From Hanleya hanleyi (taxonomy: Eukaryota > Mollusca > Polyplacophora > Lepidopleurida > Hanleyidae): a stretch of 64,000 bases of DNA. Location of the stretch: assembly GCA_036873755.1 (NCBI GenBank), contig JAVTVY010036995.1, forward strand, positions 62,001 to 126,000, read 5' to 3'. The translations under genes and the position numbers were made by a program. Below are positions 28,321 to 62,155 of the stretch, piece by piece (position 1 is the first letter of the stretch; every line of letters starts with the position of its first letter). The notes beneath the pieces were generated by a model. That model saw nothing but the letters and a program-made list of their open reading frames with translations. It was not told where the DNA came from and made no database searches.

Positions 28321-28572
28321 AGCGTCTAGTCCGTCATTCATAATTCAGCCGTTATCCATAAAAGAATATCCGCGTCCATAACCCAAAGACCTATTCCATA
28401 TTCCATATAACAGTATTAGCACCAAATTCAAAAAGACAATCATAGTATACATAAACATATGCTAGCTTCCTGCAAGAGAGGAGCGGTCCACATATTTCAA
28501 TGATGCCGGCAAGACATCATGATCTTCCAAAAATATAAAATCCGTATCACTGATGAGTATTCTTAATCCATA
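28318..28572 (-). mobile_element. Family P 3-prime tail, minus strand
   Basis: A complete tail copy runs from the outer end (ACAAGCGTCTAGTCCGTCAT) to ATTCTTAATCCATAATA. It is interrupted at 28,572 by a GC-rich segment, after which the tail sequence restarts. Confidence 0.75.
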
Positions 28573-28712
28573 ATATACCAACTCAACTGCAGCACCTGGC
28601 GAGACAGATGTACCCCGGCCGCACGCGGTTTGCATTGGAAGCCTTTAAAGATGCGACAACCCCTCAGCACGGGTATATGCTCTTTGACAGGAAGCAAACC
28701 ACCCCCGACCCC
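28573..28712. other. 140-bp GC-rich insert between two family P tails
   Basis: The composition changes abruptly: this segment contains CCCCGGCCGCACGCGG and ACCACCCCCGACCCCCGATG, unlike the flanking AT-rich DNA. It has no match elsewhere in the window and may be a captured host fragment or filler DNA at a rearrangement junction. Confidence 0.5.
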
Positions 28713-36899: not shown

Positions 36900-37511
36900 A
36901 AAGTAAGACGCGATAGAGGCAGAGGCGATAATCGGTAAGTAAGACGCGATAGAGGCAGAGGCGATATTCGGTAAGTAAGACGCGATAGAGGCAGAGGCGA
37001 TATTCGGTAAGTAAGACGCGATAGAGGCAGAGGCGATATTCGGTAAGTAAGACGCGATAGAGGCAGAGGCGATATTCGGTAAGTAAGACGCGATAGAGGC
37101 AGAGGCGATATTCGGTAAGTAAGACGCGATAGAGGCAGAGGCGATATCGGTAAGTAAGACGCGATAGAGGCAGAGGCGATATTCGGTAAGTAAGACGCGA
37201 TAGAGGCAGAGGCGATATTCGGTAAGTAAGACGCGATAGAGGCAGAGGCGATATTCGGTAAGTAAGACGCGATAGAGGCAGAGGCGATATTCGGTAAGTA
37301 AGACGCGATAGAGGCAGAGGCGATATTCGGTAAGTAAGACGCGATAGAGGCAGAGGCGATATTCGGTAAGTAAGACGCGATAGAGGCAGAGGCCATATTC
37401 GGTAAGTAAGACGCGATAGAGGCAGAGGCGATATTCGGTAAGTAAGACGCGATAGAGGCAGAGGCGATATTCGGTAAGTAAGACGCGATAGAGGCAGAGG
37501 CGATATTCGGT
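36900..37511. repeat. 36-bp minisatellite, seventeen copies, inside the integrase
   Basis: The unit is GTAAGTAAGACGCGATAGAG plus GCAGAGGCGATATTCG. Seventeen copies are nearly perfect; one (about 37,141) lacks a base, and a few single-base variants occur (for example GATAATCG in the first and GGCCATATTC near 37,390). Every plus-strand frame meets a stop in each unit, while two minus frames stay open for 186 and 279 codons. Near-identity implies recent growth in a long-dead gene. Units are contiguous with no spacers, so this is not a CRISPR array. Confidence 0.98.
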
Positions 37512-37715
37512 AAAGCTATTTCCGATAATCAAGATGAGATGACTTCCTATGGCAAATACACAGAAGCAACTGAACTTGTGGTAAACTGTCAAAAGAAGAC
37601 GTATGATGCTAATACCCTGTGGCACAGGTACAAACTAGGAGATTACGTTTGGTACTATCATGAGAAACGAGAGAAGGGAAACAGTGTCGAAATGAAAGTT
37701 CATAGTTGATACCAG
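37512..37715 (+). pseudogene. Ty3/gypsy relic: integrase C-terminus
   Basis: Immediately after the array, one frame reads SYGKYTEATELVVNCQKKTY, then WHRYKLGDYVWYYHEKREKG, the conserved KxGDxVWxYxxxRxKG stretch at the end of gypsy integrases. It stops at about 37,708. The array therefore lies between two parts of one former gene. Confidence 0.75.
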
Positions 37716-38289: not shown

Positions 38290-38800
38290 CAGTGGAAGGT
38301 GCATTTAACCAAATACACGATTCAGCCGTCGCCGTCGTATTCAGCCGTCGCCCAGTAACACATTCCGCGTCCATAATCCAAAGACTTAATAAAAATAACA
38401 ACTTTAGAACCAAATACAGAGAAAAACTTAGTATACAAAACATAGGCTTGTTTCCTCCAAGAGAGAAACGGTCAACAGTTTTCAATGATGCTGGCAAGAC
38501 ATCATGATGTTCCAAAAATATCAAGTTCGTATCGCTGATCAGTTTTCGTAATCCATATAATTTTCGTTATCTCAGTCACATTTTGATTGGAACTGTTCAT
38601 ATGAACATCATGCGTATGTTGGAGTACATGAGTTCATACGGCCCCTAGCCCAGAGTCAAACGGAATTGGACACAAGTTACGAAACGTAACTCTATAGTTG
38701 TTGATCGCTACGCTCGTATTTTGCTACCAGCATGCGATAGATATCGCAAATTTTGATAAACTTTGAGTGAAGGCGCTTGGTGCTATAGCCATAACTTTTA
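38290..38800 (-). pseudogene. Family P tail and RT end, minus strand
   Basis: The tail runs from about 38,330 (with a small duplication of TTCAGCCGTCGCC) to the stop region GGCCCCTAGCCCAGAGTCAA near 38,640. It continues into the reverse transcriptase end to about 38,800 (thumb residues in broken frames). Confidence 0.7.
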
Positions 38801-38929
38801 TAAGAATCTTAAATCGATGATAATATTTTATTCATCTCAATTGTACTGGAGCAACACCAGGATAAACATCATTATTACTGTAATAATCAATATACTTCAT
38901 AAATATTCATAGGCGAAGGCAGAAATTAC

Positions 38930-39155
38930 AAGCGTCTAGTCCGTCATTCATAATCCAGCCGTCGTCCATTAGAGAATATCCGCGTCCATAATCCAAAGAC
39001 CTATTCCATTTTCCATATAACAGTATTAGCACCTAATTCAAAAAGACAATCATAGTATACATAAACATAGGCTTGTTTCCTGCAAGAGAGAAGCGGTCAA
39101 CAGTTTTCAATGATGACGGCAAGACATCATGATGTTCCAAAAATATCAAATCCGC
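38930..39155 (-). mobile_element. Family P tail, minus strand, joined head-on to an RT fragment
   Basis: The tail begins with ACAAGCGTCTAGTCCGTCAT and ends at ATGATGTTCCAAAAATATCA. The next bases belong to the plus-strand catalytic region of another copy, an inverted junction without spacer. Confidence 0.75.
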
Positions 39156-40109: not shown

Positions 40110-40569
40110 TCATCTTTGGGCTATCCCATGATAACCGCTCCCCTTAATCGGGTAGAAGAGACACAAGACCAACTTAACCACAGATAGACGTAGTTCGATA
40201 TACATCGCTGGGAGATATTGTGTACACCCAGACGCCAAATTTCGTCACAAATGTGGTTTGGGGAATTTCTTCCTTCTTAATATGAACTTGGTTGTAGGCT
40301 GATCTATGATCTAGGATAGAAAAACATGTCACACCCTCAATCGGGTCAAGTGGAAAGGAATCTCTATGCGTTAAGACGGCGAAAATCTATGCATGGCCTT
40401 ACTGGACCAGATTTCTTCCTAACACTATAGGTGAAAACGGGGATGACGTTGACGGTCTGGCGTTCTGTAGGTTCTCTAGGGCCTTCTTGTCTTTCTCAGC
40501 GAACGCCATGGGTAGTGTTCTTGGTGGCTGCTTGATAAGTTCTGCATTACCTGTCTCATCAAATCGGTA
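40110..40569 (-). pseudogene. Ty3/gypsy pol relic 2, downstream half (RT)
   Basis: Read leftward from 40,569, the minus strand gives YRFDETGNAELIKQPPRTLP, AFAEKDKKALENLQ, RPSTSSPFSPIVL and, after stops, DHRSAYNQVHIKKEEIPQTT and FVTKFGVWVYTIS. This is the start of the reverse transcriptase. Its upstream half (linker ending DEYDLGC) lies at 44,890-45,390, so one pol gene has been split by the LTR element between. Confidence 0.85.
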
Positions 40570-41290
40570 TGTAGGATACTCTAATTATCAGACTACGATA
40601 CAATAAACCAGAGTACACAGAGTTCAGTAGGATTATTAACGATGCATTTATTCTGATTCTATAAACAGGTATGTAGCACACATATGAGATACAATGTACT
40701 TAATGTGCAATGGGTGATGTTATATACCCTAAAACCGTGATCTTACAGTACCCTATTAACCGGTGACCAACCAGTCTATTATGTTGCTATGATGTTATTG
40801 TCGTTGCATGTCTGATAGCAACCAACAAATCACATGGCCAGCAAATTTTATATGTGGTGCCTTGCCCATTCCATCATGTTGCTAGGAATTACTGACATCG
40901 ACATATCCAAAGAAAGATTATTTTCCTTGGAACACACTCCGAATAGCCTCAGCATAATTGTTCAATCAATGAGTAGGTTTTACGGATCAATCCTGATTTC
41001 CAATATTAAATCGCTTTTTATAATACACAGCAGATCAATAGATTTCCCAGGTTAAACCATACTTCCATCTTGGGTCGCTCTCTGAGAAATTCTGCTGTCA
41101 GACCCAAAATATGTTCGGCTTACCTCTGGCACATCACGAACGCAGTGGGTGCATCTCATGATGACCAGAACCGAACGGAGCCTGCACGCAACCCCGCTGC
41201 AAGACAAACCATGTGGGACTATTCGCCTGGTTATAAAGACCTGCCCTCTCACACTAGCCTACCCACCTCACTGGGATGGCTCTATGACCA
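40570..41290 (-). mobile_element. LTR copy 1 (truncated)
   Basis: It begins TGTAGGATACTCTAATTA (plus orientation) and matches the first about 720 bp of the LTRs at 41,434 and 43,866, then breaks off at CTATGACCAT. Next comes sequence matching the element interior (from about 41,304, CTTGATCCTCACTATCACCC). A deletion removed the rest of this LTR and most of an internal region. Frames of 73 and 79 codons recur in all three LTRs and are not evidence of a protein. Confidence 0.85.
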
Positions 41291-41433
41291 TCTGCATCCA
41301 CTGGCTTGATCCTCACTATCACCCTGGAATCCCAGTGGTAGCCTTTCTTGAGACATGGGTGGTCACCGTTAACATTACAGTTTAATATCCTACACCAAAT
41401 TAATATACTCGTTTGTACTCTTGACACCAAAAA
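41291..41433 (-). mobile_element. Internal leader fragment between LTR 1 and LTR 2
   Basis: It matches 43,720-43,865, the leader and primer-binding region next to LTR 3, except that part of the primer-binding sequence is lost (CTTGACACCAAAAA remains). Confidence 0.8.
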
Positions 41434-42533
41434 TGTAGGCTACTCTAATTAGCAGACTACCATAAAATAAACCAGAGTACACAGAGTTCAGTAGGAATAT
41501 TAACGATGCATTTATTCTGATTCTATAAACAGGTATGTAGCACACAGATGAGATACAATGTACTTAATGTGCAATGGGTGATGTTATATACCCTAAAACG
41601 GTGATCTTATGAACCCTATTAAACGGTGACCAACCAGTCTATTATGTTGCTATGATGTTATGTCGTTGCATGTCTGATAGCAACCAACAGATCACATGGC
41701 CAGCAAATTTTATATGTGGTGCCTTGCCCATTCCATCATGTTGCTAGGAATTACTGACATCGACATATCCAAAGAAAGATTATTTTCCTTGGAACACACT
41801 CCGAATAGCCTCAGCATGATTGTTCAATCAATGAGTAGGTTTTACGGATCAATCCTGATTTCCAATATTAAATCGCTTTTTACAATACACAGCAGATCAA
41901 TAGATTTCCCAGGTTAAACCATACTTCCATCTTGGGCCGCTCTCTGAGAAATTCTGCTGTCAGACCCAAACTACGTTCGGCTTACCTCTGGCACATCACG
42001 AACGCAGTGGGTGCATCTCATGATGACCAGAACCGAACGGAGCCTGCACGCAAACCCGCTGCAAGACTAACCATGTGGGACTATTCGCCTGGTTATAAAG
42101 ACCTGCCCTCTCACACTAGCCTATCCCACCTCACTGGGATGGCTCTATGACCATTTCACCTATTTTCTGTTTACAACCGATAAATACTGACCAGGTCATG
42201 TCACCTATACCTATCCTCTACATGCAGTATAAACAGAAGATTTCCTTCTGGTCAACGGTAAACATGAACACCCACAGCATTGATAACACTGTGACAAATC
42301 CTGGTGATAATGATATTTTGAAGAAATCCGGTATCGCCACATACTTTAACACATCTAGATACGGGTCTTTACATGTAAAAACATAGATCACCAATCACCA
42401 ATCTGTATGGTGAAAGCTATATCTAACAGAACTCGGACAAAAAGCAAAATAAAGTACTAGTAACACTAAGCTAATCAAAATATTAAGAAAATGACCTAAC
42501 TATAATTATCAAAAAAAATTAGAGCCGGTCACA
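41434..42533 (-). mobile_element. LTR copy 2 (3-prime LTR of the gag-bearing element)
   Basis: About 1,100 bp, TGTAGGCTAC at the left and GCCGGTCACA at the right, giving TG...CA on either strand. It differs from LTR 3 by scattered substitutions and an extra block around 42,258-42,340 (CATGAACACCCACAGCATTG). On the minus strand it is preceded by a purine-rich stretch (AAAAGTGAGGGTGAG), the expected polypurine tract. Confidence 0.85.
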
Positions 42534-43865
42534 CTCACCCTCACTTTTGTTTACTCTGCCCTCAGATAAACTAAACCCTAATCTTGTCTCCTATCACTTA
42601 CTGGGTAAATCGGACAACAGATGGTTCCGAGAAGAACTTTCCACGTTTTATTTTCAAGTGTTCTGCAAGGCCACCCATCATCATGATAATACCACGCGTT
42701 TCTCAATAACTGACCAGAGCACTCGGGCAACTCATTTTAAGACAGTTGACAGGACTCGCTGTTGCTAACATCGACATTCATCATGCCGTGGTGGCTGATG
42801 GTAATTTCAGTAGTAGTATACTCCAGCTGAACCTCTCCACTTTAAACATCTACAGGTACCATTACTCCAACCCTGGTTCTAGGCTTTAGTCAAACATCCT
42901 TCTTCATAATGTTGACCAGTTTAACGTAAAATGAGCCACTTGTATACAAGTGTGCCCATCTGGAGAGAATTACCTTGCAATAGAGAGGCCAGTGGTTCTA
43001 CCAAATCACAGGGCCCACAGTGTGTCCTACCACGTGGACATCACTAGCGAGTATGTACCGACCAACGGACATCACCGTCTTCAGCGCTGGTACCCCGATC
43101 AACCACAGCAACACGACAAACCACAGCAACACGACAAACTCCGACTGCAACAGAGAGATTCCTGTGGCACAGGAAACAGACCAGCGTACCGTGGCAATTG
43201 CTGCAATACATTAGTCACTATTTTGGACCCTCCCTGCTGCTATTCTCGAACTATCCTATCTATAAGTTTTACAAGTGCATGGGAAAAGCCTGACAAAATT
43301 TCTCCTTCTCTCTGCTATCTTTCGTTAAAAAACCTCAGAATCTCGGAGGGTATCAATCTTTCCCCATATACTTCTCTCAGGGCCTTCAACAATTCCTATG
43401 CAGTATTCATTCTTGAAAAATACCTAACCTCAAACCGGGCAGGGCCATCTAAATGTGATACCAGGAAGTCAACAGTCTCCCTGTACCCTAAACTAAGGGA
43501 CTGAACTACTGACTTGGCGTCCTGTACCAAGTCTTCAATAATAGATTGTCCTGAAAATCTTTTCAACTTTCTCTGTCTTGGAATGTTGACTGTCACGGGG
43601 GTCCGCTCTGCTACAGCCTGGCCCTGCAATGATAGCAGGAGCCCTCTATCATTCTGGCTCCAGCCGAAGTGCCTCCAGCTTCCCTCGGGGATACCTCCAG
43701 GTATTCCACTGATTTTCTTCCACTGCCTTGATCCTCACTATCACCCTAGAATCCCAGTGGTAGCCTTTCTTGAGACATGGTTGGTCACCGTTAACATTAC
43801 AGTTTAATATCCTACACCAAATTAATATATTCTTTTGAGCTCTATCCCACTTCTGACACCAAAAA
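42534..43865 (-). pseudogene. Interior of a short Ty3/gypsy-like element, gag only
   Basis: On the minus strand the primer-binding site TGGTGTCAGAAGTGGGAT lies just inside LTR 3 (about 43,843-43,860). A gag frame starts about 43,629 and reads IPRQRKLKRFSGQS, VDFLVSHLDGPARFEVRYF, then in another frame LLKALREVYGERLIPSEILR with one stop. This is the capsid region of gypsy elements. The interior is only 1.33 kb and I find no reverse transcriptase or integrase, so the element is non-autonomous. The region 42,950-43,250 encodes no recognised domain; two 15-bp repeats (ACCACAGCAACACGACA) cause part of the plus-strand frame. Confidence 0.8.
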
Positions 43866-44889
43866 TGTAGGCTATTCTAATTAGCAGACTACCATAAAAT
43901 AAACCAGAGTACACAGAGTTCAGTAGGAATATTAACGATTTATTTATTCCGATTCTATAAACAGGTATGTAGCATACAGATGAGATACAATGTACTTAAT
44001 GTGCAATGGGTGATGTTATATACCCTAAAACGGTGATCTTATGAACCCTATTAAACGGTGACCAACCAGTCTATTATGTTGCCATGATGTTATTGTCGTT
44101 GCATGTCTGATAGCAACCAACAGATCACATGGCCAGCAAATTTTATATGTGGTGCCTTGCCCATTCCATCATGTTGCTAGGAATTACTGACATCGACATA
44201 ACCAAAGAAAGATTATTCTCCTTGGAACACACTCCGAATAGCCTCAACATAATTGTTCAATCAATGAGTAGGTTTTACGGATCAATCCTGATTTCCAATA
44301 TTAAATCGCTTTTCATAATACACAGCAGATTAATAGATTTCCCAGGTTAAACCATACTTCCATCTTGGGCCGCTCTCTGAGAAATTCTGCTGTCAGACCC
44401 AAACTACGTTCGGCTTACCTCTGGCACATCACGAACGCAGTGGGTGCATCTCATGATGACCAGAACCGAACGGAGCCTGCACGCAACCCCGCTGCAAGAC
44501 TAATTATGTGGGACTATTCGCCTGGTTATAAAAACCTGCCCTCCCACACTAGCCTACCCACCTCACTGGGATGGCTCTATGACCATTTCACCTATTTCCT
44601 GTTTACAACTGATAAATACTGACCAGGTCATGTCACCTATACCTATCCTCTACATATACAGTATATACAGAAGATTTCCTTCTGGTCAACAGTATCGCCA
44701 CATAATTTAACACATCTAGATACAGGTTTTTACGTGTAAAAACATAGACCACCAATCACCAATCTGTATGGTGAAAGCTATATTTAACAGAACTCGGACA
44801 AAAAGCAAAATAAAGTACCAGTAACACTAAACTAATCAAAATATTAGGAAAATGACCTAACTATAATTATCAAAGTAATGCCGGTCACA
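43866..44889 (-). mobile_element. LTR copy 3 (5-prime LTR of the gag-bearing element)
   Basis: About 1,024 bp. On the minus strand it starts TGTGACCGGC and ends AGCCTACA, next to the primer-binding site. The right boundary abuts gypsy pol coding sequence. No clean target duplication is visible between the outer flanks (CGGTA at 40,569; GGTGC at 44,890), in keeping with later rearrangement. Confidence 0.85.
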
Positions 44890-49655: not shown

Positions 49656-49878
49656 TTCAGATTATTTCAAAGCCCGTTCCTTCTCATTCACCAAACGCTA
49701 TATAGACGATCTTCTTGCTGTGGATATTAATCGCTATATAAACGAAGCAATGAAGGATATATATCCACCATCACTGGATTTGAAGGAAACTACAGATGAC
49801 CCTAGCGGCACATCTTATTTAGAACCTATATCTATATACGAGCGTAGCGTGCAAGATCAATGGCGTTACATTTGGTAA
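49656..49878 (+). pseudogene. Family P RT fragment with intact YIDD and internal deletion
   Basis: One open frame reads FKARSFSFTKRYIDDLLAVD, NEAMKDIYPPSLDLKETTDD, SGTSYLEPISIY, then jumps directly to ERSVQDQWRYIW and a TAA. The whole thumb between LEPISIY and ERSVQD (about 100 codons in the 39,156 copy) is missing without loss of frame. The catalytic motif is intact. Confidence 0.85.
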
Positions 49879-50275
49879 CTTGTGTCTAATCCCACTTAAC
49901 TCGGGGCTAGGGGCCGTATGAACCTCTGTATTTCAAGATCCTGATAGTGTTCATATGAACAGTCACAATCAAAGCTTGTCTGAGATACATAATGCTCTAG
50001 ATAACAACTTTACAACGTATATCATATGGATTAAAAATACTGATCAGCGATACGGATTTGATATTTTTGGAACATCACGATGTCTTGCTGGCATCATTGA
50101 AAACTGTTGACCGCTTCTGTCTTGCAGGAAATTAGCCTAGTTTTATGCATACTATGATTTATCCTTTTAATTTGGTGCTAATGTTATTATACGAATTAGG
50201 TCTTTGGATTATGAACACAGAAATTCTTTAATGGACGAAGGCTGAATATTGAATGACGGACTAGACGCTTGCATT
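49879..50275 (+). mobile_element. Family P 3-prime tail, plus strand
   Basis: A full-length tail from the stop region (CCCACTTAACTCGGGGCTAG) to GACTAGACGCTTGCATTG, moderately diverged from 6,345-6,745. Confidence 0.75.
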
Positions 50276-51600: not shown

Positions 51601-51762
51601 GATTTTGTACCATGGTACAAAATAATCATAGGCATCCTATAAATACGATTTATGGCAGGCTTGGCATTTTTATCCCATGGTACAAAATAATTATAGGCAT
51701 CCGATAAATACGAATTATGGCAGGCTTTGCTATTTTATCCCATGGTACAAAATAATTGTAGG
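51601..51762. repeat. 65-bp satellite, left block
   Basis: CCATGG landmarks at 51,610, 51,675 and 51,740 mark a 65-bp period. The unit contains AATTATAGGCATCC, TAAATACGAATTATGGCAGG and TTATCCCATGGTACAAAAT. The same satellite, same orientation, resumes at 61,962, so all DNA between is inserted. Confidence 0.9.
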
Positions 51763-51795
51763 AGTGAGTGAGTGAGTGAGTGAGTGAATATGATA
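51763..51795 (+). mobile_element. Head of a (GTGA)n SINE
   Basis: AGTGAGTGAGTGAGTGAGTG then AATATGATA. The rest of the SINE lies at 61,767-61,961, beyond the foldback element. A (GTGA)n head is characteristic of a SINE type I recall from mollusc genomes. Confidence 0.65.
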
Positions 51796-52344
51796 CACTC
51801 TTAAAACGCAAATGTTAGATTTAACATCTAGAGTATTGGAGGAGGGATTAAAGCATTTAGAAAGTGTTGTTTCACCACTTTTTAAGTGCTGGATGCAACA
51901 GCTTAAATGTTGCATTTAACACTTGAAAGTGGTGAGTAGTATAGAAAGGTGATTTAAGGTAACATTTTCCAGGGAGGTAACTCTCTGTGGCGACAGGTGG
52001 CGTTGTTGAGGTCACGGGGAGGTCAAGTGCACTATAGTTCCGACAGGGGGCGCCACCAGCCCAAGAGACCAAAAAGCTACCTCCGTACACAGAAGAGTTC
52101 CAATTTTTGCAGGGTATGTAATCCTCCGCGGTGATGCGGTCTGGTGGTGATGCGATCTGCCTCAGCGAAGAGAAAATAGTCCTAAAAACGTGGGGAGCCG
52201 GGTAAAAATTCTCCAGACTTCAAATACGCTGCATGGACGAATTGGGTCGAGTGAAGCTCGCCTTCAGTCATGTCATGGGTGTTTTCATAGAAAAAAAATT
52301 AAATAAATAAATAAATAAAAAGCGGAAAACGGACTCCTACAAAT
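51796..52344 (+). repeat. Terminal part of left arm
   Basis: Mirrors 61,316-61,766. Paired landmarks include TAACATTTTCCAGGGAGGTA, GACCTCCCCGTGACCTCAAC (complement) and CATGACATGACTGAA (complement). The left copy has an extra about 65 bp around 52,055-52,120 and an extra small palindrome near 51,880-51,925 (CACCACTTT/AAAGTGGTG). An A-rich AAAT repeat lies at 52,299-52,318. Confidence 0.8.
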
Positions 52345-53090
52345 ATATGTATTATACAATATACGGGGAATGCCTGTATGGGTATATCCCTATACTGGCT
52401 ATAGGGGTATAGGTCCATCCTGGGAAAATTTTTGTGGGGTTTACCATGGGTTGTTTGGTTTTGGTTTTCTCGTCTCGCCAAGAAAAACACGATGGGAGGG
52501 GTCCCGGAGCTAAGCGGTGAAATTTTTCGAAAAGTACGGGGTAGGTCTGTATATAGCCCCATACTGGCTATGGGGGTATAGGTCCAACCTGGGAAATTTT
52601 TTGTGGGCTTTACTATGGGTTGTTTGGTCTTGTTTTTCCCGGAGCGAAACGGTGAAATTTTTGGAAAAGTACCGGGTAGGTCTGTATATAGCCCCATACT
52701 GGCCATGGGGGTATAGGTCCATCCTGGGAATTTTTTTGTGGGCTTTGCTATGGGTTGTTTGGTCTTGTTTTTCTCATCTCGCCAAGAAAAACACGATGGG
52801 AGGGGTCTCGGAGGTAAGCGGTGACATTTTTCGAAAAGTATCGGGTAGGTCTGTATATAGGCCCATATAGCCCCATACTGGCTATGGAGGTATAGGTCCA
52901 TCCTGGGAAATTTTTTGTGGGCTTTACTATGGGTTGTTTGGTCTTGTTTTTCACGTCTCGTCATTTAGAACACGTTGGGAAGGGCCTCGAAGCTAAACGG
53001 TTAACTTTTTTTTAAAAGTACCGGGTAGGTCTGTATATAGGCCCATATAGGCCTACTGGCTATGGGGGTATAGATCCATACTGGGTGGAC
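52345..53090 (+). repeat. Module A array, left arm
   Basis: About four units are marked by GGTCTGTATATAG at about 52,542, 52,678, 52,847 and 53,027. Each contains ACTGGCTATGGGGGTATAGG, TTTGTGGGCTTTACTATGGG and AAAAGTACCGGGTAGG. Frames of 70-221 codons on the minus strand are products of the repeat. Confidence 0.85.
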
Positions 53091-54110
53091 GTTTTGGGGT
53101 CTAGGTGAGCCCCTGGTGGACCTATGGTGTCGTATGAGGTTTTATTTTGAAGCTCTCGTGAAGGAGCATCCGACTGGGCTAATGTATCGTCCGTTTTTAA
53201 TATTCTGCGCATGCGCAGTCTGGCCGTGTTATAGAAATCCGGCATTTTGGGGGGTGCGTGGGGGTGTGTTTAGGGTAGAGATGGACCACTATGGGTCCAA
53301 AAGGATCGTGGGAGGTGTCCAAGTGAAGCTTGTGTGGGGTAGAGTCAGCATGGCGTGTTTTATATTGCAAGTCGCGTCAATCTGCGCATGCGCAGTTGGA
53401 TGTAGTAAGTAAAGTGGCCATTTTGGGGGGTGCGTGGAGGTGGATTTGGGGTAGAGCGGGACCATCTTGGTCCGAATGCGTCGTGGGAGGTGTCATTTTG
53501 TAGCTCTTGGGGGTGTAGACCCCGATTGGAGGGCTGTCCCCAGCATCTGTGACGTCACCGGTGACGTCATCAGTAGGAGTAGTAACGAAAGTGGACATTT
53601 TGGGGCAGTGAAGGAAGGTGTTTGGGGTAGAGAGGGACCATTCTTGGTCCGCATGCGTTGTGGGAGGTGTCATTTTGTAGTTCTCGGGGTGTACATCCCG
53701 ATTTGAGGGATGTTCACGTCATCGGTGACGTCATCAGTACGAGTAGTAGCGAAAGTGGGCATTTTGGGGTAGTGAAGGAAGGTATTTGGTGTAGAGAGGG
53801 ACCATCCTTGGTCCGAATGCGTCGTGGAAGGTGTCATTTTGTAGTTCTCGGGGTGTAGACCCGATTTGCGGTGTGTCCACAGCATCTGTGACGTCATCTG
53901 TGACGTCATCAGTAGGAGTAGTAGCCAAAGTGGGCATTTTGGGGCAGTAAAGGAAGGTGTATGGTGTAGAGATGGACTCATCCTTGGTCCGAATGGACCG
54001 TGTGGGGTATCAGTGTGAAGCTCTCGTGGGTCAGACTGGTTTGTTTTCATTGGAACTCGCGCCAATCGGCGCATGCGCAGTTGGCCAGTGGGTTTTCCCC
54101 GTCGTTCCTC
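53091..54110 (+). repeat. Module B array, left arm, outer block
   Basis: About six units of 165-190 bp contain TGGACCATCCTTGGTCCGAA, GTCATTTTGTAG, TGACGTCATCAGTAGGAGTA and AAAGTGGGCATTTTGGGG. Five perfect TGACGTCA sites and three TGCGCATGCGCA-type palindromes (about 53,206, 53,382 and a variant at 54,068) lie here. Confidence 0.9.
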
Positions 54111-54849
54111 CGTCTTCCATCCGGATAGTGGTCCGAATGGACCGTGTGGGGTATCAGTGTGAAGCTCTCGTGGGTCAGACTCACTTGTTTTCATTGGAAG
54201 TCGCGCCAATCTGCGCACGTGCAGTTGGCCAGTGGGTTTTCCCTGTCGTTCCTCCGTCTTCCACCCGGCTACTGTGGTTTTACATCCGGGTCCTCGTCTT
54301 AAGACAGGTGGCTTCCATGCACAGAATACAGTGCTCTGCGCATGTCCATGTATTCTGTGCATATCCAGGCACATGATGAGGGGCACATGTTCATTCCTAT
54401 GTACAGAAACCACCACCAACACCACCACACACCACCACCACCACACACCACTACCTCCACCACCGCCATCACCACCACCACCACCACCACACTCCACTAC
54501 CTCCACCTCCATCACTACCACCACCACCACACACCACCGCCACCACACACCACCACAGCCACCACCACCACCACCACCACCACCACCGGGCGTTGACGGG
54601 CGTCAACGCCCGGTGGTGGTGGTGGGAGCTCCCGTGAGGCAGAGCTCTTGGATCGAAGCTCTTGGAACTCAGAGCGTGTGGAGCGCAGAGTGCGGAAGTG
54701 ACGTCATCGTTTTACATCCGCGTCCTCATCTTACATCCGGGTTTTTCCATGTTTACTGTCACGTTTTTCCATGTTTACTGTCAGAGCTCGAAAGTGACGT
54801 CATCGCATGCATGCGCGCGTACCTGTGGTGTACCCTACGGGTATAGGGT
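54111..54849 (+). repeat. Module C, left arm, with CCA microsatellite and long hairpin
   Basis: A duplicated unit (54,040-54,270, TCGTTCCTCCGTCTTCCA) leads into an interrupted (CCA)n/(CAC)n run at about 54,408-54,588. A 19-bp stem, CCACCACCGGGCGTTGACG with its complement, closes the run (54,580-54,620). Then comes CGTGAGGCAGAGCTCTTGG, two TGACGTCA sites and a palindromic GTACCCTACGGGTATAGGGT near 54,832. The His/Thr-rich and Gly/Val-rich frames are microsatellite artefacts. Confidence 0.85.
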
Positions 54850-55860
54850 AGACCAGGGATGCCCCACCATTTTGGGGTGTGAAGGAACGTGTTTGGGGTA
54901 GAAATGGACCATTCGTGGTCCGGATGCGTCGTGGGATGTGTCAAAGTGAAGCCTTCATGGTGTACATGCCGATTTGAGGATGTTCACGTCATCTGTGACG
55001 TCATCAGTACGAGTAGTAGCGAAAGTGGGCATTTTGGAGTTGTGAAGGAAGGTGTTTGGGGTAGAGATGGGCCATCCTTGGTCCAAGTGGGCAGTGTGGG
55101 GTGTCATCTTGGAGTTCTCGCGGTGCAGACCACGATTTGAGGGAAGTTCACGTCATCTGTGACATCATTGGTGACGCCATCAGTACGAGTATTAGACAAA
55201 GTGGGTATCCTGGGGGTGTGAAAGAAGGTGTTTGGGATAGAGAGGGACCATCCGTGGTCCGAATGGGGCGTGGGAGGTGTCAAAGTGAAGCTCTCGTGGT
55301 GTACACCACGATTTATGGGATGTTCACGTCATCTGTGACGTCATTGGTAGAAATACTAGCCGAAGTGGGCGTTTTCGGGGTGTGAAGGAAGGTGTTTGGG
55401 GTAGAGATGGTCCATCCTTGGTCCGAATGCGTCGTGTGGGGTGTCAATTTGTAGCTCTCGGGATGCAGGCCCGATTTGAGAGATGTTTACGTCATCTGTG
55501 GCGTCATCAGTAGGAGTATTAGCAAAGTGGGTATTTTGGGGCACTAAAGGAACGTGTTTGGGGTAGAGATGAACCATGTTTGGTCCAAATGGCCCGGTTG
55601 AGGTATCCAAGTGAAGCTTTCGTGGGGTAGAGTCGGACTGGCGTGTTTTTTATTGCTAATCGCACCAACCTGCGCATGCGCAGTTGGTGTGTAGTAAGTA
55701 AAGTGGTTATTTTGGAGAATCGAAGCTCTCGTGGTACAGACCACGATTTGAGGGATATCCACGTAATCTGTGACGTCATCAGTACGAGTAGTAGCGAAAA
55801 CGGCCATTTTATGTGTGCAATGAAGTGCGTTTGAAAGGGGCCATCTTCGGTCTGGCTACC
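54850..55860 (+). repeat. Module B array, left arm, inner block
   Basis: Units like those of the outer block but less regular (TGACATCA, GGCGTCAT variants). Three perfect TGACGTCA sites and a TGCGCATGCGCA palindrome at about 55,672. Mirrors 58,080-59,065. Confidence 0.85.
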
Positions 55861-55871
55861 TGGTAGAGTTA

Positions 55872-55928
55872 CCTGTGTGTGTGTACGTTTGTGTGTGTAC
55901 GTGCTTGCGTGCGTATGCGTGAGGGTGT

Positions 55929-55972
<44 letters not shown>
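55872..55972 (+). repeat. TG dinucleotide run, left arm
   Basis: (TG)n with GC and AC interruptions, mirrored by the (CA)n run at 57,882-58,075. Vertebrate and invertebrate TG runs can adopt left-handed DNA; no function is claimed. Confidence 0.95.
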
Positions 55973-55973
<1 letters not shown>

Positions 55974-56049
55974 TAGCCACATTGTGCTTAGCCGTCTCTC
56001 TTTCGGAAGATATGGAGCCGTTCTTTTCTGTCGCTGTGAGACGAAACTG

Positions 56050-56300
56050 TCATTGCCACAGCGTCAGGGGCAATAGGGCAAAGACCATTGTGAGACCAAC
56101 GAGCCGTCGCTGGTTCCGGCGTAAGCGCTCGTGGTGCATATCCCAGGCATCACGGATGGCTCTCATAGTCCAGTAGTGGTGGGTGATAGCACACCTCTCC
56201 ATCGAGTCCACTCTATCGAGAACCGCTTCTGTGAACTCTTTCAAGTCTGGCGTCGCCCCTCGGTGTCGTCGCCTTCTCCAAACATGGACCGAACCACTGC
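56050..56300 (-). CDS. Short open frame conserved in both arms, left copy
   Basis: The frame stays open from about 56,316 to a TGA at 56,050-56,052, giving about 84 residues after the preceding stop, with no ATG until DSMERC. It contains [41 protein letters not shown] and ends VFALLPLTLWQ, a basic stretch followed by a hydrophobic segment that could be a membrane helix. The right-arm copy (57,520-57,784) has the same frame with about 95% nucleotide identity. Of about ten differences in 200 bases most change the amino acid, so there is no sign of purifying selection. I do not recognise a family. It may be a captured exon. Confidence 0.35.
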
Positions 56301-56689
56301 TCGGTAACCCGTGAGTGAATTACCACGGTCGCATGCTGTAAAATACGAGTCGCATAGGGATGGGTCTCCGTCATGGCTCTGCAACAGTAGGAATGGGGTG
56401 TGGGGTCCAGGGGGACGTGTTTTTTAGACCATGTTACACATGCGCGCCTACACGTAGCTCTACGTGTGTAGTCCGTGATAAGTACTATTCTGATTGGTGA
56501 GTCCAAAAAGAGAGCAACAACAACAACAACAAAGATTACAGGTTACAGATTATTATCCCTTCATCACAGCACATCCACGCTGGCGGGACCGCTATGGGTG
56601 TGTTTACAATTCACTTATGATATTGTCCGTGTATTCAGAAGTTCATTGTGCTGATCTCAGACTGCTCTTGTCCAATCAGAAGCCGACCC

Positions 56690-56970
56690 TCAGAATAAAT
56701 ATAAGTCATGTTGAAGGATGGAACACAAACTGTGGACGTCTTTCGGATTGATGGGGATCAACTGACTGTGGAGTCTGAAGACTCGACTGCAATGCTGGCA
56801 TTCAGGGCTGGGTGCCTTATGGACCGACCGTTGATGTCACCGTAAATTATCCTTACGATTAAATGACTTCCTGCAGATCGAACATGTATACTCGCCAACA
56901 GCATCTTGAAAAGTAGACTCATGGATGGGGTCAAACATCACGGGTTCCTCAGCCCTCAAGCGTGCATGTC
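56690..56970 (-). pseudogene. C2H2 zinc-finger relic in the element centre
   Basis: A minus-strand frame reads EEPVMFDPIHESTFQDAVGE, then YTCSICRKSFNRKDNLR, a TGA, HQRSVHKAPSPECQHC and SRVFRLHSQL. The first finger has the exact C-x2-C-x12-H-x4-H spacing with linker HKAPSPE, and the stop falls in the finger helix, probably a CGA-to-TGA change. The second finger keeps both cysteines but not the first histidine. It is single-copy in the window and is not part of the mirrored arms, so it may be captured host gene sequence or the last trace of an element gene. Confidence 0.6.
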
Positions 56971-57012
56971 CATGGATTACATGAGGGACACATGTTCATT
57001 CCTATATGTACA

Positions 57013-57118
57013 GACACCACCACCAACACCACCACCACACATTACCACACACCACCACCACCATCACCACACACACACATCACCACCACCACCACCACCA
57101 CACACCACCACTGTCACA
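57013..57118 (+). repeat. Central CCA microsatellite
   Basis: Preceded by ACATGTTCATTCCTATATGT, as in module C at 54,386, so this is another module C fragment in left-arm orientation. The frames through it are artefacts. Confidence 0.9.
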
Positions 57119-57124
57119 AGACAG

Positions 57125-57310
57125 GTGGCGCCCCTCGGAGATCTTGCATATAAACACGACATGCATCACACACACATACCTGGTGCATCCTGTACCCTAT
57201 AGCCCGTAGGGCATAGGGTACACCAGCATGCGGGTGTACCAGGTATGTGTGTGTGTGTGATGCATGTTGTGTTTATATGCTAGAGTTCCGAGGGGCGCCA
57301 CCTGACAACA
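57125..57310. repeat. Central inverted repeat, about 85-bp arms
   Basis: GTGGCGCCCCTCGGAGATCT pairs with the complement of the 57,290-57,307 end (GAGGGGCGCCAC). Between lie matching ATATAAACACGACATGCAT and its complement and CACACACATACCTGGTG and its complement. The innermost palindrome is TGTACCCTATAGCCCGTAGG with GCATAGGGTACA, centred at about 57,206. The related GTACCCTA palindromes at 54,832 and 59,075 show this hairpin was multiplied within the element. Confidence 0.85.
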
Positions 57311-57500
57311 TCCGGTTCCGGTCACGTGACAGTAAACATGAACAAAACCCGGATGTAAGATGAGAACCCGGATGTAAAACGATGACGTCACTTCTCAGCT
57401 CTGAGCTCCACACGCTTTGAGCTCCAAGAGCTCCGATCCAAGAGCTCTGCCACACGGAAGCTCCCACCACCACCGGGCGTTGACGCCCGTCAACGCCTCG
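57311..57500 (-). repeat. Module C fragment, right-arm orientation, in the centre
   Basis: It resembles 59,150-59,340 (GGATGTAAAACGATGACGTC, GAGCTCTGCCACACGG, GGGCGTTGACGCCCGTCAAC). With the fragment at 56,960-57,118 it makes a smaller mirrored pair in the centre. Confidence 0.8.
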
Positions 57501-57509
57501 TATTTTACA

Positions 57510-57786
57510 GCATGCGACAGTGGTTAATTCACTCACGGGTTACCGAGCAGTGGTTCGGTCCATGTTTGGAGATGTCGACGACAACGAGGGGCGACGCCAG
57601 ACCTGAAAGAGTTCACAGAAGCGGTTCTCGACAGAGTGGACTCGATGGAGAGGTGTGCTATCACCCACCACTACTGGACTATGAGAGCCATCCTTGATGC
57701 CCGGGCTATGGACCACGAGCGCTCACGCCGGAACCAGCGACGGCTCGTTGGTTTCACAATGGTCTTTGCCCTATTGACACTGACGC
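57510..57786 (+). CDS. Short open frame conserved in both arms, right copy
   Basis: The right-arm counterpart of the left frame. After TAA at about 57,524 it reads [70 protein letters not shown] and ends [11 protein letters not shown] at a TGA. Overlapping frames in other phases exist (57,512-57,697) and are also similar between arms, as expected for a recent duplication. Confidence 0.35.
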
Positions 57787-57881
57787 TGTGGCAATGACAG
57801 TTTCGTCTTACAGCGACAGAAAAGAATGGCTCTTTAGAGCCTTCATATCTTCCGAAAGAGAGACGGCAAAGCACAACGTTC

Positions 57882-58075
57882 ACACACACACAGGCGCGCG
57901 CGCGCGGACGCACAAACACACACGCACACACACACACACGCACACACACGCACACACACACGCACACACACACGCACACGCACGCACGCCCAGAGGTACA
58001 CACACACACACACACACACACGCACACCCTCACGCACACGCATGCATGCACGTACACACACAAACGCACTCCATT
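57882..58075 (-). repeat. CA dinucleotide run, right arm
   Basis: (CA)n with CG interruptions, mirrors 55,872-55,972 and is about twice as long. It produces open frames on both strands that are not genes. Confidence 0.95.
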
Positions 58076-58079
58076 GCAC

Positions 58080-59065
58080 ACATAAAATGGCCGCTTTCGC
58101 TACTACTCGTACTGATGACATCACAAATGACATGGATATCCCTCAAATCGTGGTCTGTACCACGAGAGCTTCGATTTGACACCCTACACACCACCCTTGG
58201 ATGAGATATAGAACCTCAAACTCTCACATATACCCTTGTGCACCTCCAAAATAATCACTTTACTTACTACACACCAACTGTGCATGCGCAGATTGGTGCG
58301 ACTAGCAATACAAAACACGCCAGTCCGACTCTACCCCACGAAAGCTTCACTTGGATACCTCAACCGGGCCATTTGGACCAAACATAGTTCATCTCTACCC
58401 CAAACACCTTCCTTCACTGCCCCAAAATACCCACTTTGCTAATACTCCTACTGCTGACGTCACCAATGACGTGAACATCCCTCAAATCGAGGTCTGCACT
58501 CCGAGAGCTACAAAATGACATGACACCCCACACGACGCATTCGGCCCAAGGATGGACCATCTCTGCCCCAAACACTTTCCTTCACACCCCGAAAACGCCC
58601 ACTTTGGCTAGTATTCCTACTGATGACGTCACCAATGACGTCACAGATGACGTGAACATCCCACAAATCGTAGTGTACACCACGGGAGCTTCACTTTGAT
58701 GGTCCCTCTCTACCCCAAACACCTTCTTTCACACCCCCAGAATATCCACTTTGGCTAATACTCCTACTGATGACGTCACCAATGGCGTCACAGATGACGT
58801 GAACATCCCTCAAATCGTGGTTTGCACCACGAGAACTACAAGATGACACCCAACACACTCCACTTGGACCACGGATGGTCCATCTCTACCCGAAACACCT
58901 TCCTTCACAACTCCAAAATGCTCACTTTCGCTACTACTCGTACTGATGACGTCACAGATGACGTGAACATCCCTCAAATCGGGATGTACACCATGAAAGC
59001 TTCACTTACCACGGATGGTCCATTTCTACCCCAAACAACTTCCTTCACACCCCAAAATGGCGGGG
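58080..59065 (-). repeat. Module B array, right arm, inner block
   Basis: Reverse-oriented units with five perfect TGACGTCA sites (around 58,455, 58,624, 58,638, 58,767, 58,946) and an NRF1-like TGTGCATGCGCA at 58,281. Mirrors the left inner block. Confidence 0.85.
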
Positions 59066-59720
59066 CATCCCTGGTGTACCCTATATCCGTAGGGTACACC
59101 ACAGATACGCGAGCATGCATCCGATGACGTCACTTCCGAGCTCTGACAGTAAACATGGAAAAACGTGACAGCAAACATGAGAAAACCCGGATGTAAGAGG
59201 ACACGGATGTAAAACGATGACGTCGCTTCCGCGCTCTGAGCCCCACACGCTTTGCGCTCCAAGAGCTTCGATCCAAGAGCTCTGCCACACGGGAACTCCC
59301 ACCACCACCGGGCGTTGACGCCCGTCAACGCCCGATGGTGGTGGTGGTGGTGGTGGTGGTGGCGGCTGTGGTGGTGTGTGGTGGCGGTGGTGTGTGGTGG
59401 TGGTGGTGGTGGAGGTAGTGGTGTGTGATGGTGGTGGTGGAGGTGATGGTAGTGGTGGTGGTGATGGTGGTGGTGATGGTGATGGTGGTGGTGGAGGTAG
59501 TGGTGTGTGGTGGTGGTGGTGGTGTGTGCTGGTGGTGATGTTGGTGGTGGTGACTTCATAGGAATGAACATGTGTCCCTCATCACATGCCTGGATATGCA
59601 CAGAATACATGGACATGCGCAGAGTACATGTATTCTGTGCATGGAAGCCACCTGTCTTAAGACGAGGACCCGGATGTAAAACGACAGTAGCCGGATGGAA
59701 GACGGAGGAACGACGGAAAA
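59066..59720 (-). repeat. Module C, right arm, GGT microsatellite
   Basis: Contains GTACCCTATATCCGTAGGGT (59,076), the stem GGGCGTTGACGCCCGTCAAC (about 59,309), an interrupted (GGT)n run at 59,336-59,560 and the complement of GCACAGAATACATG. The 238-residue His/Pro-rich minus frame spans the array and is an artefact. Confidence 0.85.
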
Positions 59721-60650
59721 AACTCACTGGCCAACTGCACATGCGCAGACTGGCGCGACTTCCAATGAAAACAAGCCAGTCTGACCCACGAGAGCTTCAC
59801 ATTGATACCCCACACGGTCCATTCGGACCACTATCCGGATGGAAGACGGAGGAACGACGGGAAAAACCCACTGGTCAACTGCGCATGCGCCGATTCGCGC
59901 GACTTCCAATGAAAACAAGCCAGTCTGACCCACGAGATCTTCACACTGATACCCCACACGGTCCATTCGGACCAATAATGGTCTATCTCTACACCAAATA
60001 CCTTCCTTCACTGCCACAAAATGCCCGCTTTGGCTACTACTCGTACTGATGACGTCACAGATGACGTGAATATCCCCCAATCGGGATGTACACCCCGAGA
60101 ACTACAAAATGACACCTCCCACGACGCATTCGGACCAAGGATGGTCCCTCTCTACCCCAAACACACCTCCACACACCCCCAAAATGCCCACTTTGGCTAC
60201 AACTCCTACTGATGACGTCATCAATGACGTCACAGATGACGTGAACATCCCTCAAATCGGGATGTACATCCCGAGAGCTACAAAATGACACCTCCCACGA
60301 CGCATTCGGACCAAGGATGGTCCATCTCTACCCCAAATACCTTCCTTCACCGCCCCAAAATGACCCCTTTCGTTACTACTCCTACTGATGACGTCACCAA
60401 TGACGTCCCAGATGACCCGAAACGCCCTCAAATCGGAGTCTGCACCCCGAGAGCTACAAAATGACACCTCCCACGACGCATTCGGACCAAGGATGGTCCA
60501 TCTCTACCCCAAATACCTTCCTTCACCGCCCCAAAATGACCCCTTTCGTTACTACTCCTACTGATGACGTCACCAATGACGTCCCAGATGACCCGAAACG
60601 CCCTCATTGAATATTGAATACCCGAATATTGAAAACGGACGATACATTAG
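59721..60650 (-). repeat. Module B array, right arm, outer block
   Basis: Includes two units with CAAGCCAGTCTGACCCACGA and NRF1-like palindromes (about 59,738 and 59,880), then four units with GGACCAAGGATGGTCC. The last two units (about 60,256-60,430 and 60,437-60,605) are almost identical, a recent tandem duplication. Five perfect TGACGTCA sites. Confidence 0.9.
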
Positions 60651-60704
60651 TCCGGTCGGATGCTCCTCCACGAGAGCTTCAAAATAGGGGCTCACCTAGA
60701 CCCC

Positions 60705-61315
60705 AAAACGTCCACCCAGTATGGACCTATACCCCCATAGCCAGTAGGCCTATATTGGCCTATATACAGACCTACCCGGTACTTTTCAAAACATTTCACC
60801 GCTTAGCTCCGGGACCCCTCCCATGGTGTTTTTCTTGGGGAGACGAGAAAAACAAGACCAAACAACCCATAGTAAAACCCACAAAATATGTCCCAGGTTG
60901 GACCTATACCCCCATAGCCATGCAGTATGGGGCTATATGGACCTATATACAGACCTACCCGGTACTTTTCGAAAAATTTCACCGCTTAGCTCCGGGACCC
61001 CTCCCATCGTGTTTTTCTTGGCGAGACGAGAAAAACAAGACCAAACAACCCATAGTGAAGCCCACAAAAAAAATCCCAGGTTGGACCTATACCCCCATAG
61101 CCAGTATGGGACTATATGGGCCTATATGGGCCTATATACAGATCCACCCGGCACTTTTCGAAAAATTTCACCGCTCAGCTTCGGGACCCCTCCCATCGTG
61201 TTTTTCCTTGGCGAGACGAGAACAACAAGACCAAACAACCCATAGTAAACCCCACAAAAAAATTCCCAGAATGGACCTATACCCCCATAGCCAGTATGGG
61301 GATATACCCATACAG
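60705..61315 (-). repeat. Module A array, right arm
   Basis: Reverse-oriented units with CCCCCATAGCCAGTATGGG, CTACCCGGTACTTTTC and GTGTTTTTCTTGGCGAGACG. The 267-codon plus frame (60,614-61,417) is repeat-derived. Confidence 0.85.
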
Positions 61316-61766
61316 GCATTTCCCGTATATTGTATAATACATATAATTGTAGGATTCCGTGTTCCGCTTTTTATTTTTTTATTTTTATTTTTTTCTGTGA
61401 AAACACCCATGACATGACTGAAGAGAGCTCCACTCGACCCAATCGGTCCATGCAGTGTATTTGAAGTCTGGAGAATTTTCCCCCGGCTCTCCACGTATTT
61501 AGGACCATTTTCTCTTCGCGGTGGCAGACCGCATCACCACTAGACCGCATCACCGCGGAGCTGGTATCGCCCCCTGTCGGAACTATAGTGCACTTGACCT
61601 CCCCGTGACCTCAACAACGTCACCTGTCGCAACAGAGAGTTACCTCCCTGGAAAATGTTACTTTAAATCACCTTTCTATACTACTGTGGTGAATACAACA
61701 CTTTCTAAATGCTTTCCCTCCTTCAATACTCTAGATGTTGAATCTAGCATTTGCGTTGTGAGAGTG
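61316..61766 (-). repeat. Terminal part of right arm
   Basis: Mirrors 51,796-52,344. Ends GAGAGTG-TA. Contains the complement of the left AAAT-rich run as TTTTTATTTT. Confidence 0.8.
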
Positions 61767-61961
61767 TATAATGTCACTTTCAACTATATTTCAGTCATAT
61801 CACGACGTTGGGTCCTATTCCTTTTCACACCCGGGAACCCACAGGTGCCTCAGTTAGTCGCCTCTTACGACAAGCTCTCTGAGGAGCCGAGGTTTATTCT
61901 TACCATGACCTGCGGTGTGCACAACGACATCCCAGGTGAATCCCCGGAAGCCCCACGGGGC
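61767..61961 (+). mobile_element. Body of the interrupted SINE
   Basis: ATGTCACTTTCAACTATATT, then CAGTCATATCACGACG, and further on CCCACAGGTGCCTCAGTTAG and TCGCCTCTTACGACAAG. These words resemble a (GTGA)n-headed SINE I recall from mollusc genomes. The 179-codon frame at 61,521-62,060 crosses the element-SINE boundary and is not a gene. Confidence 0.6.
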
Positions 61962-62155
61962 AATAATTATAGGCATCCTATAAATACGAATTATGGCAGG
62001 CTTGGCTATTTTATCCCATGGTACAAAATAATTATCGGATCCTATAAATATGAATTATGACAGGCTTTGCGATTTTATATCATAGTTCAAAATATTTACA
62101 GGCATCCTATAAGTATTTTATATCATGGTATAAAATGACGAATTGTGGCAGGGAT
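61962..62155. repeat. 65-bp satellite, right block
   Basis: Continues the left block in the same orientation: AATTATAGGCATCCTATAAA, TACGAATTATGGCAGG, TATCCCATGGTACAAAAT, with increasing decay toward 62,150. The SINE is bounded on both sides by AATAATTRTAGG, either its target duplication or neighbouring satellite copies. Confidence 0.85.

What the first reader, a model, noticed from the sequence alone, without database searches (positions are those of the whole stretch)
51796..61766. A 10-kb foldback-like element with modular tandem-repeat arms
The element is a near-mirror structure about 9.97 kb long with TA at both ends. Each arm combines several tandem arrays of different period (about 150-180 bp, about 165-190 bp, CCA, CA) in the same order. 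Known foldback elements have arms of one or two repeat types, so this multi-module design at this size is unusual. No enzyme gene is visible, so it would depend on a transposase encoded elsewhere.
Basis: partly seen in the sequence, partly recalled or inferred. Interest (0 to 1): 0.8.

Follow-up and report, generated by a model that had tools for sequence, protein, structure and literature searches.

The report
Giant foldback descendant of a Maverick
A 9.75-kb near-mirror-image stretch of an animal genome is most likely a decayed mobile element descended from the virus-like Maverick/Polinton transposons, and some of its relatives in the same genome are almost perfect palindromes with a gene in each half.

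Summary
The mirror structure is real, but its ends and class were misread. The TA-flanked outer 133 and 75 bp are parts of a small palindromic MITE; 39 of 39 other scored copies match on both strands within 216 bp. The real element is 51935-61685 (9,751 bp): ends AGTAGT//ACTACT, 6-bp duplication GTGGTG, arms of 4,418 and 4,192 bp, 90.5% identical. Ten of 12 complete copies have perfect 6-bp duplications. These ends plus 6-bp duplications are the published Maverick signature (PMC8097293). Same-ended copies carry a Maverick-type packaging ATPase or an ORF like the N-terminal part of Polinton polymerases. Some are near-total palindromes with a gene in each arm: one of 8,140 bp is 98.5% self-complementary, with duplication GTCCGG. 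A shared hairpin is the symmetry axis in some copies and asymmetric in others. Best reading: a decayed, non-autonomous Maverick foldback, born by hairpin snap-back during replication and integrated by a Maverick's enzymes in trans. Ancestry is well supported; snap-back is inferred; no autonomous partner with these ends was shown. New variant of a known kind.

The parts
51602..51762 (+). 65-bp tandem repeat, left remnant of the array (right part at 61962-62116, same strand)
   Evidence: TRF
51762..51793 (+). (GAGT)n head of a SINE-like element; its other part, with GTTAGTCGCCTCTTACGACAAGC at 61853-61875, is about 61769-61961
   Evidence: that it is a SINE is recalled, not tested
51794..51795 (+). 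TA duplication of the MITE (other copy 61767-61768)
51796..51934 (+). left part of the palindromic MITE, ending in the GTGGTG duplicated by the big element
51929..51934 (+). 6-bp target-site duplication GTGGTG, left copy
51935..61685 (+). the foldback Maverick-derived element, AGTAGTATAG...CTATACTACT
51935..56352 (+). left arm, 4,418 bp
51935..52380 (+). outer arm module, no tandem array called here; 26 of 40 scored places (2 of them the window's own arms) match from base 51935
   Evidence: inner limit by eye
52502..53085 (+). tandem array, periods 135/179 bp (mirror 60747-61300)
53411..53995 (+). tandem array, period 164 bp (mirror 59964-60606, period 176)
53985..54268 (+). 144-bp unit twice (mirror 59691-59974)
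54409..54587 (+). CCA array (mirror 59336-59552)
54588..54611 (+). hairpin-2 GGGCGTTGACG...CGTCAACGCCC (also 57475-57498 and 59310-59333)
54828..54853 (+). hairpin-1 GTGTACCCTA...TAGGGTAGAC in asymmetric flanks (mirror 59074-59099)
54986..55622 (+). second array of period 164-176 bp (partial mirror in 58551-58831)
55870..55971 (+). TG/CA array (mirror 57908-58042)
56015..56404 (-). decayed coding-like remnant (MFGD...), shared with L018, L028 and L029
   Evidence: tblastn E 4.9e-27
56353..57493 (.). asymmetric core
56756..56917 (-). C2H2 zinc-finger remnant, 44% over 54 aa to the zinc fingers of the 322-aa ORF of relatives
   Evidence: tblastn E 9e-9
57122..57304 (.). small palindrome with hairpin-1 (57190-57223) at its axis
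57484..57898 (+). second copy of the MFGD... remnant, mostly in the right arm
   Evidence: tblastn E 4.6e-48 in three pieces
57494..61685 (-). right arm, 4,192 bp
61686..61691 (+). 6-bp target-site duplication GTGGTG, right copy
61692..61766 (+). right part of the palindromic MITE

Best explanation
The element (51935-61685) is a decayed, non-autonomous foldback member of a Maverick/Polinton-derived family. Shown: Maverick-type ends, 6-bp duplications at different sites, relatives with the same ends that carry Maverick-type genes, and relatives that are near-total palindromes. Inferred: the DNA was copied by a protein-primed, strand-displacing Maverick polymerase supplied in trans. During such synthesis a nascent 3' end folded at a hairpin and copied its own strand, giving an inverted dimer with the same terminus at both ends. 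Because both ends are functional, the dimer can be replicated and integrated in trans, like a defective interfering genome. Tandem arrays in the arms then grew and shrank by slippage and unequal exchange. This copy integrated into a MITE, itself inside a SINE-like element inside a 65-bp array, and has since decayed.
For: Ends and duplications: 12 copies with both ends paired, 10 with a perfect 6-bp duplication; every other length from 4 to 12 bp fits 0 of 12; left and right flanks taken from different copies match in 1 of 132. (AGT)2//(ACT)2 plus 6-bp TSD is published for vertebrate Mavericks (PMC8097293, passages and section 7). Genes in copies with both ends: an ATPase ORF or its pieces in L029/L030 (C41024, TSD AACATA), L032, L033, L034, L035; of the 120 homologues listed for it, 27 bear PF04665. 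A zinc-finger ORF in L009/L010 and L022/L023 (both ends found) and in L011, L017, L036, L037 matches P0121/P0125/P0127/P0128 in pieces of about 30-71% identity, which I recognise, from recall, as N-terminal regions of Polinton polymerase proteins. Palindromes: mirror fraction L032 100%, L033 97%, L034 95%, window 90%, L035 88%, with TSDs GTCCGG, GACACC, GATGTG, GTGGTG and, for L035, 5 of 6. Among the capped lists of 150, all contigs with a close opposite-strand pair of the ATPase (6) or of the polymerase-N ORF (7) have the two genes head to head. Arms carry different genes: ATPase (L032-L035), polymerase-N (L009/L010, L022/L023, L036, L037), MFGD remnant here. Hairpin-1 is an axis in L022, L027, L032, L035 and, over a short stretch, at window 57190; it is asymmetric at window 54828 and 59074, L015, L016, L017.
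Against: No copy with these ends and a full set of polymerase, integrase and capsid genes was found. PolB is in the genome (164 PF03175 matches from 84 scored of 1,723 candidates), but I could not show that it shares these ends: in the 1.1 kb behind one PolB ORF (L041) there was no AGTAGTATA even with one mismatch; two one-mismatch hits lie inside the ORF. The window copy has only decayed remnants. Pfam did not itself recognise PF04665 in the ATPase ORFs that I scanned (L029 piece, L015, L027), so that name rests on homologues. Copies were found and paired through the end motif, so the motif count is not independent; the duplications are. L009/L010 has no TSD and L035 5 of 6; two further motif pairs that I left out (L026, whose family matches run on past the left hit; L036, whose symmetry runs past both hits) have none, which would make it 10 of 14. 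The ends of the L036 and L037 palindromes are unresolved. L020 and L024 are hardly mirror-like (12% and 26%). Hairpin-1 evidence rests on 10 places in stretches picked for matching, and the centre of any spacer-free palindrome is trivially a hairpin, so only the shared sequence and its asymmetric occurrences count. L033 arms are not each other's closest copy and their ATPase pair has dN/dS 0.86. Pooled pN/pS below 1 (0.38, 0.49, 0.50) may reflect selection in a parent element and the choice of open frames.
Confidence: 0.83

Rival explanations
1. A Tc1/mariner-type (TA) foldback with ends at 51796 and 61766, as first read.
For: TA and an inverted repeat are present at those ends.
Against: These ends form a separate palindrome that is uninterrupted in 39 of 39 other scored places, and outside the window's contig no listed match of the arm extends past 51932.
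Confidence: 0.02
2. A foldback of the Mutator or P (Galileo) type, as most known foldbacks are thought to be, that has picked up Maverick genes.
For: Long arms with tandem repeats look the same; most foldbacks seem to be Mutator-related (PMC4079207, passages).
Against: Duplications are 6 bp in 10 of 12 complete copies, and 7 to 12 bp fit 0 of 12; ends are (AGT)2//(ACT)2.
Confidence: 0.05
3. The Maverick ancestry is right, but the palindromes arose by host repair or recombination between inverted copies (fold-back breakage repair), not by snap-back in element replication.
For: Inverted duplications by fold-back priming are reported in yeast and human genomes (PMC10622511, PMC3907307; titles and abstract starts in the listing). 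L033b is 98.0% identical to L031 and 95.5% to L033a. The symmetry of L036 runs past an internal terminus-like site.
Against: Several palindromes sit as units between Maverick-type ends with 6-bp duplications, so they integrated as palindromes; the hairpin at the axis is shared by copies with different genes.
Confidence: 0.3
4. Assembly artefact (false palindromes from sequencing reads).
For: Missed adapters in libraries can give palindromic reads (recalled).
Against: The arms of the palindromes measured differ by about 1.5% (L032, L034) to 10% (window), and 10 of 12 copies lie between matching 6-bp duplications.
Confidence: 0.02

Closest known systems
Mavericks/Polintons (vertebrate set of PMC8097293: passages and section 7 read)
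   Same: (AGT)2//(ACT)2 ends, 6-bp duplications, packaging-type ATPase in relatives, polymerase-type N-terminal ORF in relatives
   Different: Published TIRs of intact elements are 46-1,447 bp (mean 402) and elements 12.7-24.6 kb; here arms of over 4 kb up to the whole element, size 0.7-15 kb, and no integrase, capsid or polymerase core recognised in the fetched copies
Foldback elements with modular arms: Tetris (PMC4079207, passages); TU of sea urchin, Galileo, FB (recalled)
   Same: Long inverted arms of tandem-repeat modules, no enzyme in known complete Tetris copies
   Different: Tetris: 8-10-bp duplications, arms up to 1,735 bp, assigned to Mutator; Galileo: P superfamily
Symmetric recombinant or defective genomes of protein-primed viruses such as adenovirus (recalled)
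   Same: Inverted dimers in which one end replaces the other
   Different: Here integrated and multi-copy in an animal genome; the comparison is by analogy only

Membership tests
Maverick/Polinton | 6-bp target-site duplication | tested here: met
   window copy, and 10 of 12 complete copies in all
Maverick/Polinton | (AGT)2//(ACT)2 or similar end motif | tested here: met
   both ends of the window element; 11 of 12 complete copies, the window's included, have it at both ends, L021 has AGTAGC at one; copies were found through this motif. Motif from PMC8097293
Maverick/Polinton | terminal inverted repeats | tested here: met
   4.4/4.2 kb here, far longer than published
Maverick/Polinton | packaging ATPase | tested here: inconclusive
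   absent from the window copy (tblastn); present in same-ended relatives; PF04665 in 27 of 120 listed homologues but not called in the ORFs themselves
Maverick/Polinton | protein-primed DNA polymerase B | tested here: not met
   tblastn with one 286-aa PolB C-terminal piece hits nothing in the window or the other fetched stretches; only an N-terminal-like ORF in relatives. The genome has PolB genes, ends not linked. So: a derivative, not an autonomous Maverick
Maverick/Polinton | retroviral-type integrase, capsid and protease genes | tested here: inconclusive
   none recognised among the ORFs looked at; not every ORF was scanned against Pfam
Foldback element | long inverted arms with tandem repeats making up most of the element | tested here: met
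Tc1/mariner | TA duplication at the element's own ends | tested here: not met
   TA belongs to the MITE
Mutator foldbacks | 8-10-bp duplication | tested here: not met
   0 of 12 copies with 8, 9 or 10 bp

The most novel reading that the evidence does not exclude
These palindromes are a self-sustaining class of satellites of Mavericks: one-ended inverted dimers that are born by snap-back at a built-in hairpin, replicate and integrate with a Maverick's enzymes, and keep under selection one or two proteins (a zinc-finger packaging ATPase, a zinc-finger polymerase-N-terminal protein) with which they compete for their helper's replication or packaging, much as virophages or defective interfering genomes do.
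Probability: 0.3. Interest if true: 0.9.

Novelty: new variant of a known kind. Interest (0 to 1): 0.77.

Why it matters
Foldback elements have mostly been tied to Mutator (with exceptions such as Galileo), and the enzyme behind Tetris, for one, was not found (PMC4079207, passages); this ties a large foldback family to Mavericks by ends, duplications and genes. It also gives a natural record of palindromic genomes in a virus-like transposon lineage, with arms from about 90% to 98.6% identical, so that the origin of giant inverted repeats and the existence of satellites of Mavericks become directly testable in one animal genome.

Tried and rejected
Rejected: TA-ended element; Mutator/P foldback by duplication length; assembly artefact. 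Led nowhere: exact pattern scans for the SINE tail in viral and bacterial/archaeal contigs and for the TGACGTCA-rich unit and the TA end in viral contigs: none; Rfam scan of the window at gathering thresholds: none; homologues of the second zinc-finger ORF: none at E <= 0.001; Pfam of the five window ORFs scanned: only laminin-G above the cut-off. Literature on palindromic, foldback or non-autonomous Polintons: searches (20 of 34 listed; 20 of 284; 13 of 13; 2 of 2); I saw no title or abstract start that describes them, but papers were not read through and most subscription journals are not held. An adenovirus panhandle search gave nothing used.

Full report
What is there. The mirror structure exists, but it is a nest of elements. 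A 65-bp tandem array (51602-51762 and 61962-62116, same strand) is split by a SINE-like sequence that starts with GAGT repeats and holds a GTTAGTCGCC... tail (its likeness to mollusc SINEs is recalled, not tested). That sequence is split by a small palindrome with TA at both ends, and the palindrome is split by the large element. Removing 51935-61685 and one GTGGTG gives back the small palindrome: 218 bp with both TAs, 192 of 224 alignment columns identical to its reverse complement. The same sequence is common in the genome: of 1,612 first-look candidates 40 were scored, and the 39 outside this locus all match on both strands, overlapping, within at most 216 bp, that is, they are unbroken.

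The element. It is 9,751 bp, 51935-61685, begins AGTAGTATAG and ends in its complement, and is flanked by GTGGTG on both sides. Its arms are 4,418 and 4,192 bp; over 4,000 aligned positions they are 90.5% identical (K2P 0.102). From the end inward an arm holds an outer module, an array of period 135/179, one of 164-176, a 144-bp unit twice, a CCA array, hairpin-2, hairpin-1, a second 164-176-bp array, a CA array and a coding-like remnant. The element has 22 TGACGTCA sites, the other 54 kb of the window one. The core (56353-57493) is asymmetric, with a zinc-finger remnant.

The family. The source genome is held: 2.48 Gb in 52,793 contigs; its name is not given. The outer arm as first bounded gave 6,284 first-look candidates, of which 40 were scored; outside this contig no listed match began before window base 51932. 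With the corrected end as query, 40 of 911 candidates were scored and 26 of 40 (2 of them the window's own arms) match from its first base. I fetched stretches that matched well, so they are not a random sample. In them I could pair both ends of 12 elements, the window's included: 10 have perfect 6-bp duplications (GTGGTG, CAGCTC, CAGGTG, GACGGA, GCTGCA, AACATA, GTCCGG, AACGTC, GACACC, GATGTG), L035 has 5 of 6, L009/L010 none; the other lengths from 4 to 12 bp fit 0 of 12; of 132 left-right pairs taken from different copies one matches. Dropped before this count: L025, the same place as L020 in a second contig (300 of 300 flank bases identical); motif pairs in L026 and L036 without duplication; and stretches in which only one end or none was found. 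Copies with different duplications at different places show mobility.

Class. Intact vertebrate Mavericks most often end in 5'-(AGT)2//(ACT)2-3', with 6-bp duplications (PMC8097293; passages and section 7). The copy at C41024 (ends in L029 and L030, duplication AACATA) has TIRs of 1.28 kb at 97% identity and an ORF for an ATPase; a search with 162 residues of it found 218 proteins at E <= 0.001, and 27 of the 120 listed carry PF04665, a packaging-ATPase family (family meaning recalled). Pfam scans of such ORFs themselves did not call it. An ORF of about 322 aa with C2H2 fingers resembles, in pieces of about 30-71% identity, proteins that I recognise from recall as N-terminal regions of Polinton polymerases; it stops before any polymerase domain. 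A second zinc-finger ORF has no homologue found. Polymerase genes proper exist in the genome (164 PF03175 matches) but their ends are unknown to me; the 1.1 kb behind one PolB ORF showed no AGTAGTATA-type terminus.

Palindromes. L032 is one inverted repeat from end to end, 8,140 bp, 98.5%; L034 has 4.5-kb arms at 98.6%. Mirror fractions of the nine elements measured are 100% (L032), 97% (L033), 95% (L034), 90% (window), 88% (L035), 70% (L016), 42% (L021), 26% (L024) and 12% (L020). In L032, L033, L034 and L035 an ATPase ORF or its pieces lie in both arms, in L036 and L037 the 322-aa ORF. Genome-wide, 150 of 28,586 candidates were scored for the ATPase: all 150 are 95-100% identical and 5 have a stop inside; 150 of 35,772 for the polymerase-N ORF: all at least 99% identical, 94 at 100%, none with a stop. 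These are the best-scoring ones, so the true spread is wider and the copy number is not measured. Close opposite-strand pairs occur on 6 and 7 contigs of these lists and all 13 are head to head. Pooled pN/pS is 0.38 (ATPase, 6 ORFs), 0.49 (polymerase-N, 7) and 0.50 (second finger ORF, 7), with single pairs up to 0.86; I chose frames that were open, which biases this downward.

How it may work. [quoted passage not shown] that it displaces a strand is recalled. A nascent strand that folds at a hairpin and copies itself gives an inverted dimer with one terminus at both ends. Hairpin-1 was found in 10 places: as axis of wide symmetry in L027, L032 and L035 (flank identity 0.94-1.00 from 60 to 1,200 bp), less cleanly in L022 (0.87, 0.72 and 0.89 to 300 bp, then 0.64), over 60 bp at window 57190 (0.90, then 0.35), and in asymmetric flanks (0.44-0.66) at window 54828 and 59074, L015, L016 and L017. 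Control: 200 random centres, 60-160 bp bin only, median 0.57, 95% at 0.66, maximum 0.95. Flanks on one side mostly fall in one related group, while the partner side varies; L017 fits neither. In vertebrates polymerase and ATPase share one gene module and integrase and capsid the other, which fits palindromes made from one end; that is inference.

What speaks against. No autonomous partner with these ends; two palindromes (L036, L037) whose ends are not resolved, one of which runs past a terminus-like site; L033, whose arms are not closest to each other; two copies hardly mirror-like; small and chosen samples; and names that rest partly on recall.

Noticed in passing
L018 6357-9900; L029 3092-5219; L030 1413-2189: Reverse-transcriptase ORFs of Penelope-like look (RVT_1 below the cut-off; GIY-YIG just over the cut-off in L018) inside or beside Maverick-derived copies ('Penelope-like' recalled).
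   Followed up: partly
L036/L038 (C19543), L037/L039/L040 (C21860): Palindromes of at least about 10 and 11 kb with a 322-aa ORF in each arm whose symmetry runs to or beyond the limits of the fetched stretches.
   Followed up: partly
window 51935-61685: 22 TGACGTCA (CRE-like) sites against 1 in the other 54 kb.
   Followed up: no
window 3230-3717, 6255-6742, 28313-28576, 38339-39154, 49828-50271: A dispersed repeat in at least five places, two of them an inverted pair of 488 bp at 94.9%.
   Followed up: no
window 36901-37513: 36-bp tandem repeat, 17 copies, 99% matches.
   Followed up: no
window 40569-44874: Local duplications of 0.7-1 kb at 95-97% identity.
   Followed up: no
window 12959-13561: ORF with a laminin-G match (Pfam E 5.5e-12), probably an exon of a host gene.
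   Followed up: no
window 21098-22888: Tandem arrays of about 145-175 bp.
   Followed up: no
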